Origin: a virus
Virus record (IMG/VR): IMGVR_UViG_3300046535_001092
Coordinates: 1 to 64,000 of that record
Direction: 5' to 3' (one strand)
Length of the DNA stretch: 64,000 nt
Position numbers and translations under genes: made by a program. The stretch's first letter is position 1. Every line of letters begins with the position of its first letter. This document shows positions 2,952 through 46,351 of this stretch, in pieces. The notes beneath the pieces were generated by a model that did no database searches, had not been told where the DNA came from, and saw nothing but the letters and a program-made list of their open reading frames with translations.

Positions 2952-3386
2952 CTAGTTCTTAACCACACCTGTAAGGGTGATAGAAGAGGCTCCTGTGTAG
3001 GTGCCTACAGTTGTGTACTTGACTCTAAGCTGTGATCCTAGGAGACCTGTGAGGATAGTGTTGACTGTGAGGGCGCCGTCGCCTGGGGTGATTGCTGGAG
3101 CTAGGGCGATGCAGGTAACAACCGCTGAGACCTTCGTGGCTGTTGTGGTTGCGAAGCTAAACTCCATGATATCGATCCAGGTGTGACCGTTATCGAGGGT
3201 GGTTTGGACGAAGAAGTCTGCTGAGGTTCCACCACCAACACGCACGAAAGTAGCCTGAACAGCAAGATAGTTCATGCCATCAAGGTTCAGGATTGGAGTA
3301 GAGGTTGATCCAGTTACAGCAGCTGCTAAGGTTGTAGTAGGGAGAAGTGTGAGAAACCTTCCACCTGAGATTGTATGTGATAGCAT
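2952..3386 (-). CDS. putative structural protein
   Basis: 144 aa, Thr/Ala/Val rich, with predicted beta strands and no charged coiled coil. It contains a FFVQTTLDNGHTWIDIMEF-like strand pair as seen in phage virion proteins of unknown role. It is 2 nt from the downstream gene. Confidence 0.55.
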   Translation of the reverse strand: MLSHTISGGRFLTLLPTTTLAAAVTGSTSTPILNLDGMNYLAVQATFVRVGGGTSADFFVQTTLDNGHTWIDIMEFSFATTTATKVSAVVTCIALAPAITPGDGALTVNTILTGLLGSQLRVKYTTVGTYTGASSITLTGVVKN

Positions 3387-6060: not shown

Positions 6061-6095
6061 AGTCCTCCCCACCTAGTTTATAGATGAGGAGGACT
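6061..6095 (-). terminator. terminator of the major capsid gene
   Basis: AGTCCTCC (6061-6068) pairs with GGAGGACT (6088-6095), 8 bp. On the minus strand it is followed by CTCTTTATAA. Together with the promoter at 7521-7549 it makes the capsid gene a separate transcription unit. Confidence 0.65.
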
Positions 6096-6109: not shown

Positions 6110-7057
6110 TTACGGAGCCTGCGAGATAACTGCTAGACGTGACTTGTTATTGGTCACGAACTGTAGTGCAGAGTAGATCTTGAACACGAATGCGTTCTGA
6201 TCTGGGATCTCGATGGTGTTACCCTTGTCGCGGAAGTACTGCTTCGAGCAGACTAGGTTGTACGACTTGGGGTTGAGGAAGTAGATCTTGTCTGCACCGT
6301 ACTGAGAGTAGACATAGCGGCTGGTCTTGAACGCGAGGACCTTGAAGCCTGCGTCGGCTTCGCTGGTGTCGTTGAACCGCTGTAGGGTCTGTAGCTGCGA
6401 CTCGTAGAGAGCCTGAGCTGTTGCACCCGAGATTAGGAACTTAGGTGCGAGAGTTGACCCGCTACCCTTTGCCGCTGTATCCCACGCTGTTGTCATTGTG
6501 GCTTCGATATCAGTTGCATCGGTGTATGTGGTTGCGTAGTTTCTCCACCATGTTTCCACGGCTGAGTCGATGGCTCCGACAACGCCCTGACCTGTGGTAG
6601 GTACTAGGTTGTCTAGACCCTGGAGTTCGTCTCCACCTGCAGTCGAGGTTGTGAAGATGTTGCGCTCGATGAGGTCGTCATGGGTATTGATTGCATTCTC
6701 AAGGATCTGCTTGACTAGTGCAATCTTCTGGTTCTCGGAGGGGTTCTTTGCGTCATCGCCCTTGGTCCAGACCACGGGAACTGAAAGCTGAGCAACTGGG
6801 TAAGATGCCGAGGTGACTACGATTGTCTTTAGGAGCGAAGCCGTGTCCTGGTCTGAGGCGAGGATGGCTGCGTCTGGGTTCGGACGGTAGTCTAGGGGTG
6901 CTTCGATGTGGTCGCCTAGTGAGACACGAGTAACGGCGCCCTGGCGCTCTAGTTCTCGCATTGCGGCAGACTCAACCCACTGGTTGGCAGCCTTTCTCAT
7001 CTCCGCTAGAACAGCTGGGTAGCTGACTGCGACAATCTGTTCAATATCTAATGCCAT
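6110..7057 (-). CDS. major capsid protein
   Basis: 315 aa, the usual size for an unprocessed HK97-fold capsid subunit. Features include an N-terminal helical arm (YPAVLAEMRKAANQWVES), an E-loop-like segment at residues ~63-90, then VPVVWTKGDD (93-102) and ENAINTHDDL (120-129). Later comes ISGATAQALYESQLQTLQRF and a C-terminal strand set (FVFKIYSALQFVTNNKSRL). The scaffold gene lies immediately upstream and candidate decoration genes downstream. It is set apart from them by its own promoter, long leader RNA and terminator. A half-length paralogue lies at 47985-48470. Confidence 0.88.
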   Translation of the reverse strand: MALDIEQIVAVSYPAVLAEMRKAANQWVESAAMRELERQGAVTRVSLGDHIEAPLDYRPNPDAAILASDQDTASLLKTIVVTSASYPVAQLSVPVVWTKGDDAKNPSENQKIALVKQILENAINTHDDLIERNIFTTSTAGGDELQGLDNLVPTTGQGVVGAIDSAVETWWRNYATTYTDATDIEATMTTAWDTAAKGSGSTLAPKFLISGATAQALYESQLQTLQRFNDTSEADAGFKVLAFKTSRYVYSQYGADKIYFLNPKSYNLVCSKQYFRDKGNTIEIPDQNAFVFKIYSALQFVTNNKSRLAVISQAP

Positions 7058-7079
7058 GTGTGTAGGTACCTATAGAAAA

Positions 7080-7515
7080 AGGGTTGTTAAAGGTTAACTT
7101 TTGGCTCATTGACGGGGAGTAGAACCCGATAGTTGAACTTTTAACCCTAGTTCTAGGGCACTAACAAGGAAGGACTCGGTCGCAAGCTACTCGCTATGGT
7201 TGGCTTTGGCTATATTAACGTCCCGTACCGAGGGAAGGACGAAGAGATTATCTAAACAGGGTTCCCTGTCTATTGAAGCAGGTTAGCAGCCTTTAGCCGG
7301 GTATGCCGGTCTACCCACTGATCAGTTTAGATAAGGTGGCGGTCCATCCCCGGCAAGCCGCCGTTCCAGCATCCCTTTCGGGACCGGATATGGCAAACCA
7401 AGGATGGGCCATATAAAATTTGTTCACTGTAACCCGGTGAGGGGGCGGTAAAGGCTTTATCGGGTGGGGTTTGGGTGATAAAGCCCGTACCTGGAGGAAG
7501 GAGGAGGGGGAGCTT
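7080..7515 (-). ncRNA. large structured RNA / capsid-gene leader
   Basis: About 440 nt with no gene, transcribed on the minus strand from the promoter at 7521-7549. It holds many perfect helices: 7453-7461/7477-7485 (9 bp), 7388-7394/7408-7414 (7 bp), 7338-7342/7358-7362 (5 bp) and 7175-7180/7227-7232 (6 bp). There is also a long-range 10-bp helix 7248-7257/7325-7334 and hairpins at 7145-7158, 7256-7269 and 7297-7309. Stem 7372-7375/7380-7383 has a GAAA tetraloop only when read on the minus strand, which fixes the sense. An 8-bp self-complementary site (CTGATCAG, 7318-7325) could allow dimer contacts. It resembles ornate phage RNAs of the GOLLD/ROOL kind in style, but I cannot match a known family. 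It may be free RNA, a cis leader, or both. Confidence 0.7.
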
Positions 7516-7520
7516 TATAC

Positions 7521-7549
7521 ATAGTAGCACATCTAGTACTAAATGTCAA
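7521..7549 (-). promoter_or_regulatory. promoter for leader RNA and major capsid gene
   Basis: Minus strand TTGACA (7549-7544), 17-bp spacer, TACTAT (7526-7521), with TG one base upstream of the -10 (extended -10). The start would fall near 7514. Confidence 0.8.
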
Positions 7550-20450: not shown

Positions 20451-20820
20451 TCACAGTCAAACAAGATTGCCACACGGTAGTTGCAACTAGTTGTGTGGTA
20501 GGCTGTGAGACTCGACTAAGCGAGTATAAATAGCTTTTAGGCTTAGTGCGCTCCATTCACCTTAGGGTGGATGGGGGTAAAGTCCGTATACTTGCTCACA
20601 CAAGTATAACAGCATAACGGACAAGGTGAGTAAGGACGTTATGCCTGTATGGATGTTGGGACTATGTTATGGGCTTGCTTGTTACGTCCCTCCTATAAAT
20701 AAAGCGGGTCTGTGCCTCTGGATCAATTGCTAGTCTGACGCTAGAGGCGAGATAGTGACTAGCCAAAGGGTGGCTGTGTTAGGAACCTTGGTAGTGGTGC
20801 AAGCCACATAAACTACCAGC
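20451..20820 (+). ncRNA. large structured intergenic RNA with pseudoknot (element 2)
   Basis: The 380-base gap holds no gene. Helices seen: 20451-20456/20503-20508 enclosing 20470-20475/20493-20498; 20515-20521/20541-20547; 20553-20561/20566-20574 (9 bp, one G-T); 20582-20587/20617-20622; 20587-20594/20601-20608; 20761-20765/20771-20775; and 20789-20794/20813-20818. Helices 20714-20719/20743-20748 and 20729-20735/20757-20763 interleave as an H-type pseudoknot. The density of helices suggests a folded RNA. Sense assumed. Confidence 0.55.
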
Positions 20821-45264: not shown

Positions 45265-45293
45265 TTGACATCTGTGGATGGTCGTGCTATCGT
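45265..45293 (+). promoter_or_regulatory. promoter of the replication operon
   Basis: TTGACA (45265-45270), 17-bp spacer, TATCGT (45288-45293), with TG at the extended -10 position. Downstream of the operator pair. Confidence 0.7.
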
Positions 45294-45373: not shown

Positions 45374-46351
45374 TTGGCAGATACTAAAAGGTTTCTCACC
45401 CTTGATGACTTGACACATATGCCTCAACCTCAATGGCTTATCGAAGGTCTCTTCGAAGTTAATGGTTTGGTAATGTTGGCTGGTCCTCCAGGTAACTATA
45501 AGTCCTTCTTGGCCTTAGACTGGCTTCTTTGTATGTCCACGGGACTCAAGTGGTGTAACAGATTGACTACACCGGCAAAGACCCTATATGTGTTAGGTGA
45601 GGGTAAGGCATCATTGCTAAAGAGAATGGAGACATGGATCACCTACAATGACCTAGGAGAGCGAGAGATGGAGAGGCTAAAGGAGAACTTCAGAGTCACC
45701 TTTAATGTGCCTCAGATGGCATCCAAGGCCTCCACAGATAACCTCCTGAATGACTTAGAGAATGAGAACTTCCATCCCTCTGTCATCGTAATTGATACCT
45801 TCGCTAGGTCGTTCGTAGGCCTCGACGAAAATAGTCAAAAGGATACCGGCTTATGGATTGAGAGTGCTGAGCGTCTAAGGGAAAAGGGGATGGCTGTGAT
45901 ATTCCTACACCATACCAAGAAGAATATGGATTATGGCCTCCAGTATCGTGGTTCGTCTGCTATAATGGGAGCCATGGACACAGCTATGGTCCTATCTAAG
46001 GATGGTCAATCAGCTAGGGTTGTTCTTAAGGTTGTGAAGCAGAAGGACCATGAGGAAGCTAAGCCTATGACCTTCATTAGACAGGTCATTGGATCGTCTA
46101 GAGAAGAGGGATCAGTTGTGCTAGTCCCTGCCCCCTCTATTGACGAGAGGTTTACTGTCGAGGGTCAGCATATTGATGAGGTTATCAAGCAATTAATTAG
46201 AGATGATACCTTCGAATCCGATCGAGCTAGAAGTCGTATCCTAGTCACAAGTTATGGGTTTACTGATAGTGCTGCCCAAAGTCGAGTAGCAGCCATGAAG
46301 AAACGAATGGAGAAGGAGAAGGATAATGAGCAAGCCCTTGTCACCAGATGA
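45374..46351 (+). CDS. RecA-fold ATPase (AAA_25/RepA-like helicase)
   Basis: 325 aa, TTG start with GGGGAG upstream. Walker A GPPGNYKS (37-44), Walker B SVIVIDTFARS, then MAVIFLHHTKKN and QYRGSSAIMGAMDTAMVL (sensor/arginine region). This is the hexameric RepA/AAA_25 type used as replicative helicase or recombination motor. A C-terminal 70-residue part resembles a small winged helix (TFESDRARSRILVTSYGFTD). It is the first gene after the regulated promoter. Confidence 0.82.
   Translation: MADTKRFLTLDDLTHMPQPQWLIEGLFEVNGLVMLAGPPGNYKSFLALDWLLCMSTGLKWCNRLTTPAKTLYVLGEGKASLLKRMETWITYNDLGEREMERLKENFRVTFNVPQMASKASTDNLLNDLENENFHPSVIVIDTFARSFVGLDENSQKDTGLWIESAERLREKGMAVIFLHHTKKNMDYGLQYRGSSAIMGAMDTAMVLSKDGQSARVVLKVVKQKDHEEAKPMTFIRQVIGSSREEGSVVLVPAPSIDERFTVEGQHIDEVIKQLIRDDTFESDRARSRILVTSYGFTDSAAQSRVAAMKKRMEKEKDNEQALVTR

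What the first reader, a model, noticed from the sequence alone, without database searches (positions are those of the whole stretch)
7080..7549. Large ornate RNA with its own promoter in front of the capsid gene
Seen: a perfect extended -10 promoter, then ~440 gene-free nt with at least eight perfect helices, a 10-bp long-range pairing, a GAAA tetraloop that exists only on the minus strand, and a self-complementary CTGATCAG. Known: phages carry large structured RNAs (GOLLD, ROOL) of unknown or multimer-forming nature. Inference: it may be a new RNA family, either free or a leader controlling capsid synthesis, possibly one that is packaged.
Basis: partly seen in the sequence, partly recalled or inferred. 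Interest (0 to 1): 0.85.

Follow-up and report, generated by a model that had tools for sequence, protein, structure and literature searches.

The report
Structured capsid-gene leader with eroded tRNAs
In front of the main shell-protein gene of an uncultivated phage lies a promoter and a folded 460-base untranslated leader, a slot that in its relatives carries a recurring C/U-rich hairpin and often tRNA and tRNA-like genes; it is most likely a control region for making shell protein rather than a giant free-standing RNA.

Summary
The promoter and gene-free stretch are real. On the minus strand a near-consensus extended -10 promoter (7549-7521) precedes a 463-nt untranslated leader, the capsid gene (7057-6110) and a terminator-like hairpin (6095-6061). 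The leader folds better than shuffles only on the sense strand (z about -2.5 to -3). It matches no Rfam family. Its sequence is unique apart from one identical sibling contig, so its own helices cannot be tested by covariation.

Close capsid relatives (60% identity or more) explain the slot. Promoter, long leader and capsid recur, usually with a terminator. Seven leaders share a hairpin with a C/U-rich, anti-Shine-Dalgarno-like apical loop and covarying stems. Eight carry tRNAs or tRNA-like genes, including 49-51-nt 'mini-tRNAs' without an anticodon arm. The capsid SD is masked more than chance in the family.

The window keeps the C/U motif (UCCUUCC three times) and shows two weak tRNA remnants (7194-7165, 7170-7102).

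Best reading: a cis-acting leader of a one-gene capsid transcript whose tRNA cargo has eroded. GOLLD/ROOL-like or packaged RNA is unsupported. The C/U-loop hairpin and the mini-tRNAs look new. A trans-acting SD-targeting RNA remains possible.

The parts
7521..7549 (-). Extended -10 sigma-70-type promoter TTGACA-N17-TACTAT with TGn; contains the imperfect palindrome ACATTTAGT/ACTAGATGT (7546-7529)
   Evidence: extended -10 promoters in the same place in most close relatives. Palindrome in the window alone P 0.21
7058..7520 (-). 463-nt untranslated, moderately structured capsid leader
   Evidence: no Rfam match
7493..7512 (-). C/U tract CUCCCCCUCCUCCUUCCUCC, anti-SD-like; holds the 9-mer CUCCUUCCU that is the apical loop in L025 and L028; predicted loop of an early 5' hairpin (7518-7512 with 7484-7478)
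   Evidence: the strict hairpin form is absent in the window
7453..7485 (-). Later, stronger hairpin GGCUUUAUC/GAUAAAGCC that competes with the early 5' hairpin
   Evidence: pair probability 1.0; replaces the early hairpin between 60 and 75 nt of transcript
7337..7410 (-). 74-nt strongly folded element ending in GCCA, with a GAAA-capped arm; tRNA-sized but not recognised as tRNA
   Evidence: tRNA model scores it only 1.5 bits
7248..7334 (-). 87-nt element closed by the 10-bp repeat UUAUCUAAAC/GUUUAGAUAA; role unknown
   Evidence: Forms locally but about 3% in the full ensemble
7233..7239 (-). Second UCCUUCC copy
7165..7194 (-). Probable tRNA remnant 1 (GCGAGTA..GCTTGC..GTCCTTCCTTG), includes the third UCCUUCC copy
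   Evidence: family-wise P 0.007; ordinary alignment not significant
7102..7170 (-). Probable tRNA remnant 2, T-arm and terminal GCCA
   Evidence: 13.1 bits, E 0.0023 in 531 nt (0.96 over 226 kb); T-arm like the tRNA-Gly of L011 (P 0.019)
7067..7072 (-). Weak capsid Shine-Dalgarno UAGGUA
6110..7057 (-). Major capsid gene
   Evidence: phrog_9953, E 7.9e-30
6061..6095 (-). Terminator-like hairpin behind the capsid gene

Best explanation
This is the 5' leader of a one-gene capsid transcription unit: promoter 7549-7521, 463-nt leader, capsid gene, terminator. The leader slot is a modular RNA island. In relatives it begins with a C/U-loop hairpin, then holds tRNA, mini-tRNA or endonuclease cargo, and ends in a structured capsid ribosome-binding region. 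In this phage the tRNA cargo has largely eroded and a structured leader remains. Inferred mechanism: the folded leader stabilises the transcript and tunes capsid translation in cis, with the exposed C/U (anti-SD-like) motifs as an interaction site for an SD or a protein. Shown computationally: the promoter-leader-capsid-terminator layout; recurrence of the C/U hairpin with covarying stems in relatives; SD masking as a family average. Inferred: that it is one transcript, that the remnants are former tRNAs, and any regulation.
For: Promoter and terminator-like sites bracket leader plus capsid, none lies between them, and the layout recurs in relatives. C/U-loop hairpin in 7 of 13 leaders, null mean 0.86, maximum 4 of 300; stems covary. 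Anti-SD-like motifs 43 against 15.6 expected; the window has UCCUUCC three times. tRNAs or tRNA-like genes in eight relatives and remnants in the window. SD masking in the family, p about 0.005. Tightly folded leaders even without recognisable tRNAs.
Against: No transcript data. The window's SD is not masked more than chance and its C/U hairpin is not the strict family form. The tRNA remnants are weak; E 0.96 over all sequence searched and no signal in ordinary alignment. The middle of the leader (about 7450-7230) is unexplained. The covariation register was set by hand.
Confidence: 0.6

Rival explanations
1. The leader, or its 5' part after processing, acts in trans as a small RNA whose C/U motifs pair with Shine-Dalgarno sequences of other mRNAs, while the capsid's weak UAGGUA SD escapes.
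For: C/U loops pair with a canonical SD at -8 to -16 kcal/mol; in the window the capsid RBS is among the weakest partners of 17. Small RNAs with C-rich loops that block SDs are known: LhrC with three UCCC sites (PMC4132741), sX13 with three C-rich loops (PMC3771888). The window has three UCCUUCC copies.
Against: No sign of a free 3' end; no terminator before capsid. Any C/U loop pairs with an SD by composition. Targets were not tested beyond one set of RBSs.
Confidence: 0.15
2. The stretch is mostly a decaying tRNA array with no present function beyond being a 5' UTR; the fold is residual.
For: tRNA remnants; the middle part alone is little more stable than shuffles (z -1.7); helix counts near chance.
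Against: Close relatives without recognisable tRNAs have z below -4; C/U motifs are retained three times in the window and the hairpin covaries in relatives.
Confidence: 0.18
3. A large free or packaged ornate RNA of GOLLD/ROOL type.
For: Own promoter, about 440 gene-free nt, fold z about -3.
Against: No Rfam match even at permissive threshold; not conserved in any relative; leads straight into the capsid gene without a terminator; the slot holds other cargo in relatives.
Confidence: 0.04

Closest known systems
Phage T7 gene 10 (capsid) transcription unit (layout from own knowledge; its RBS with enhancer is the subject of PMC8748333)
   Same: A capsid gene with its own promoter, an untranslated leader with a special ribosome-binding region, and a terminator behind it
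   Different: Here a host-type extended -10 promoter, a leader several times longer, anti-SD-like hairpins and tRNA cargo; no evolutionary relation shown
Phage tRNA gene arrays
   Same: Relatives carry genuine tRNAs (Gly, Ala, Asn, Pro and others) in this slot on the capsid strand
   Different: The array sits inside the capsid transcript leader and includes tRNA-like genes with altered or missing anticodon arms; in the window only remnants are left
C-rich-loop SD-targeting small RNAs (S. aureus RNAIII/RsaE, Listeria LhrC PMC4132741, Xanthomonas sX13 PMC3771888)
   Same: Several exposed C/U motifs complementary to SD sequences
   Different: No evidence of a free RNA or of targets; located as a 5' leader; no sequence relation tested
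GOLLD and ROOL RNAs (Rfam)
   Same: Gene-free, structured RNA in a phage genome
   Different: No covariance-model match; not conserved; leads into a coding gene

Membership tests
GOLLD / ROOL (Rfam) | Match to the family covariance model | tested here: not met
   Searches (gathering; E up to 5): no such match
GOLLD / ROOL (Rfam) | Discrete abundant non-coding transcript | not testable with these tools
   No expression data
tRNA (RF00005) | Cloverleaf recognised by Rfam or ARAGORN in 7058-7520 | tested here: not met
   none
tRNA-derived remnant | Significant similarity to leader tRNAs of relatives | tested here: inconclusive
   Model 13.1 bits, E 0.0023 in the leader but 0.96 over 226 kb; deletion-tolerant alignment P 0.007; ordinary alignment not significant
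C/U-loop leader hairpin of the capsid relatives (defined here) | C/U-rich 8-10-nt apical loop on a 5-bp inner stem near the promoter | tested here: not met
   7 of 13 leaders have it, the window (L020) does not in strict form
C/U-loop leader hairpin of the capsid relatives (defined here) | C/U motif (UCCUUCC or similar) just behind the promoter | tested here: met
   tract at 7512-7493, UCCUUCC three times in the leader against 0.08 expected
Capsid monocistron (T7 gene 10-like layout) | Promoter, leader, capsid gene, terminator | tested here: met
   (sequence-level only)
Capsid monocistron (T7 gene 10-like layout) | Leader enhances or controls capsid translation | tested here: inconclusive
   SD masked in the family on average, not in the window; no experiment
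C-rich-loop SD-targeting small RNA | Exposed C-rich motifs able to pair with SD sequences | tested here: met
   (prediction only)
C-rich-loop SD-targeting small RNA | Free small RNA that represses targets | not testable with these tools
   Needs RNA-seq and reporter assays

The most novel reading that the evidence does not exclude
An undescribed phage regulatory RNA class: the capsid transcript begins with an RNA that displays anti-Shine-Dalgarno loops and, in relatives, carries CCA-ended mini-tRNAs that cannot decode. After processing, these parts act in trans, damping competing mRNAs or serving as decoys, while the capsid mRNA is spared.
Probability: 0.13. Interest if true: 0.8.

Novelty: new variant of a known kind. 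Interest (0 to 1): 0.5.

Why it matters
It turns an odd gene-free stretch into a testable model: capsid synthesis in a group of uncultivated phages appears to run from its own promoter through a modular leader that is also a landing site for tRNA genes and endonuclease genes. The C/U-loop hairpin with covarying stems and the 50-nt mini-tRNAs match no Rfam family searched here. If the anti-SD loops act on translation, these phages would be using a mimic of the ribosome's own mRNA-selecting sequence to favour shell protein.

Tried and rejected
Homologues of the leader by DNA: none in 50,697 phage records, in 18 relatives' records beyond the identical sibling, or by two exact-pattern scans of IMG/VR. 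Capsid relatives in GTDB genomes: none confirmed; host unknown. A search with the upstream, scaffold-position protein gave no closer relative. Mini-tRNA in the window leader: no convincing sense-strand hit; an antisense hit over the promoter (13.2 bits) was set aside as chance or the local inverted repeat. Ordinary local alignment to leader tRNAs was not significant; only a deletion-tolerant test was, so that test was chosen after the first failed. Cis pairing between C/U loops and the phage's own capsid RBS: P 0.05, driven by one locus, not relied on. Operator palindrome: family signal, but not significant in the window. Literature searches found no description of this leader type in the held library. 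MAFFT alignment of the hairpin misplaced the outer stems, so covariation was counted on a hand-made register. The file of the whole record was not available.

Full report
OBSERVATION. On the minus strand the 463 bases between the promoter and the capsid gene (7057-6110, phrog_9953) hold no credible gene. The gene upstream (8642-7572) lies where a scaffold gene would, but matched no family. A promoter TTGACA-17-TACTAT with TGn lies at 7549-7521; patterns of this kind occur twice in 64 kb against 0.13 expected. The leader is more stable than shuffles on the sense strand only (z -2.96 against +0.20). Individual helices are close to chance in number (P 0.07-0.09), and the 10-bp pairing has about 3% probability in the full ensemble. 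There is no Rfam match.

NO DIRECT HOMOLOGUES. The only other copy is an identical contig, L001, 100% over 6945 bases. Phage records, relatives' records and pattern scans give nothing else. Covariation of the window's own helices is therefore untestable at present.

POSITIONAL HOMOLOGUES. Searches with the capsid protein found 61 loci encoding relatives in IMG/VR, none in GTDB genomes, and only remote ones (about 30% identity or less) in named phages such as Mx8. In close relatives a TTGACA promoter, mostly with an extended -10, sits just behind the upstream gene and a leader of about 230-990 nt precedes capsid. A terminator-like hairpin follows the capsid gene in the window and in most close relatives examined. 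The unit therefore looks like a dedicated capsid transcript.

WHAT RELATIVES CARRY IN THE SLOT. tRNAs on the capsid strand in L005, L006, L009 and L011, and tRNA-like genes found by a covariance model built from the leader tRNAs in L007, L008, L010 and L025 (L007 and L008 were among its training sequences). In L008, L010 and L025 the anticodon arm is enlarged (sequence), and L005 and L006 carry UUA (stop) anticodons. Four relatives have 49-51-nt mini-tRNAs: a 7-bp acceptor, a 14-16-nt linker, a 5/7/5 T-arm and NCCA, with no anticodon arm. The four distinct strict hits in leaders contrast with two chance-like hits in the rest of 556 kb; a model of them finds only these in 284 kb (they are its training set). 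Apparent HNH-type and other endonuclease frames also occur there (read from the sequence; not searched against families).

A RECURRING HAIRPIN. Near the promoter seven leaders have an outer stem (6-8 bp), a short 5' bulge, an inner stem (4-5 bp), an apical C/U loop such as CACCUCCU or CUCCUUCCU, and a 4-6-nt 3' internal loop. All pairs but one form, and every position shows at least two pair types (hand-made register). A strict search finds such C/U-loop hairpins in 7 of 13 leaders, null mean 0.86, maximum 4 of 300. Anti-SD-like motifs are enriched nearly threefold over all leaders (43 against 15.6), while SD-like motifs are not. In L028 the hairpin lies behind an endonuclease frame inserted after the promoter, as its near-sibling L089 shows, so the hairpin behaves as a module of its own.

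THE WINDOW'S VERSION. It has the tract CUCCCCCUCCUCCUUCCUCC at 7512-7493 and UCCUUCC three times (0.08 expected), but no strict hairpin. The tract lies in the loop of an early hairpin that is predicted to be replaced by a stronger one once about 75 nt are made, leaving it single-stranded.

tRNA REMNANTS. The leader-tRNA model scores 13.1 bits at 7170-7102 (E 0.0023 in the leader, 0.96 over all loci), with a T-arm and terminal GCCA. A deletion-tolerant alignment matches 7194-7165 to the L008 tRNA (family-wise P 0.007). The T-arm in the first matches the tRNA-Gly of L011 (P 0.019), and a tRNA-Gly is last in the arrays of L006, L009 and L011. Ordinary alignment was not significant. I regard erosion of a former tRNA array as likely, not proven.

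FUNCTION. Across 13 leaders the capsid SD is less accessible than in shuffles (0.19 against 0.33, p about 0.005), although not in the window (0.47 against 0.35). Close relatives without recognisable tRNAs are strongly folded (z below -4 in L021-L023), so structure is kept when tRNAs are absent. The best-supported function is cis control of capsid mRNA stability or translation. The C/U loops pair well with a canonical SD and weakly with the window's capsid SD, so a trans role like that of LhrC or sX13 (PMC4132741, PMC3771888) cannot be excluded.

VERDICT. A real, moderately structured capsid leader in an unusual modular slot; not a GOLLD/ROOL-like RNA. The C/U hairpin and the mini-tRNAs of relatives are the parts that look new.

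Noticed in passing
L005 2767-2815; L008 241-291; L009 2524-2574; L010 2218-2266: Mini-tRNAs of 49-51 nt: acceptor stem, tiny linker hairpin, T-arm and encoded NCCA, no anticodon arm; all in capsid leaders and not called by Rfam or ARAGORN.
   Followed up: partly
L011 145-nt region of the leader (GGGTTCTGTGACCGTAAGGTTGTGGGGCCCACCA); L034 leader (AGGGCGGGAGTCAGAAATGGTTGTCGCCCTGCCA): 34-nt CCA-ended minihelices, possibly still smaller tRNA-like elements.
   Followed up: partly
L005 2821-2896; L006 2422-2496: tRNAs with anticodon UUA, which would read the stop codon UAA.
   Followed up: no
L007 about 3087-3370; L029 and L035 upstream of the capsid match: Insertions near the start of the capsid gene that resemble group I introns by eye; Rfam did not call them.
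   Followed up: partly
window 20510-20582 +: Pistol self-cleaving ribozyme (RF02679, 57.4 bits) in the phage genome.
   Followed up: no
window 45265-45293 +: The only other TTGACA/extended -10 promoter match in the window; an ORF of 325 aa with an ATPase-like motif starts at 45374.
   Followed up: partly
promoters of L034, L037, L038, L041, L046, L049 and others: Inverted repeats of differing sequence overlap or flank the capsid-leader promoters more than expected (combined P about 1e-6, coarse shuffles): operators or RNA hairpins.
   Followed up: partly
L030 leader start (and L089): The RNA just after the promoter (AGACUUUAGGAAG) is nearly complementary to the C/U loop plus inner stem (CUUCCUAUAAGUCU), suggesting an alternative pairing that would mask the loop; a similar pairing with other letters is seen in L089. 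Seen by eye.
   Followed up: no
L037, L041, L050 leaders: More distant relatives have short leaders that begin with a hairpin carrying a CGUAA loop.
   Followed up: no
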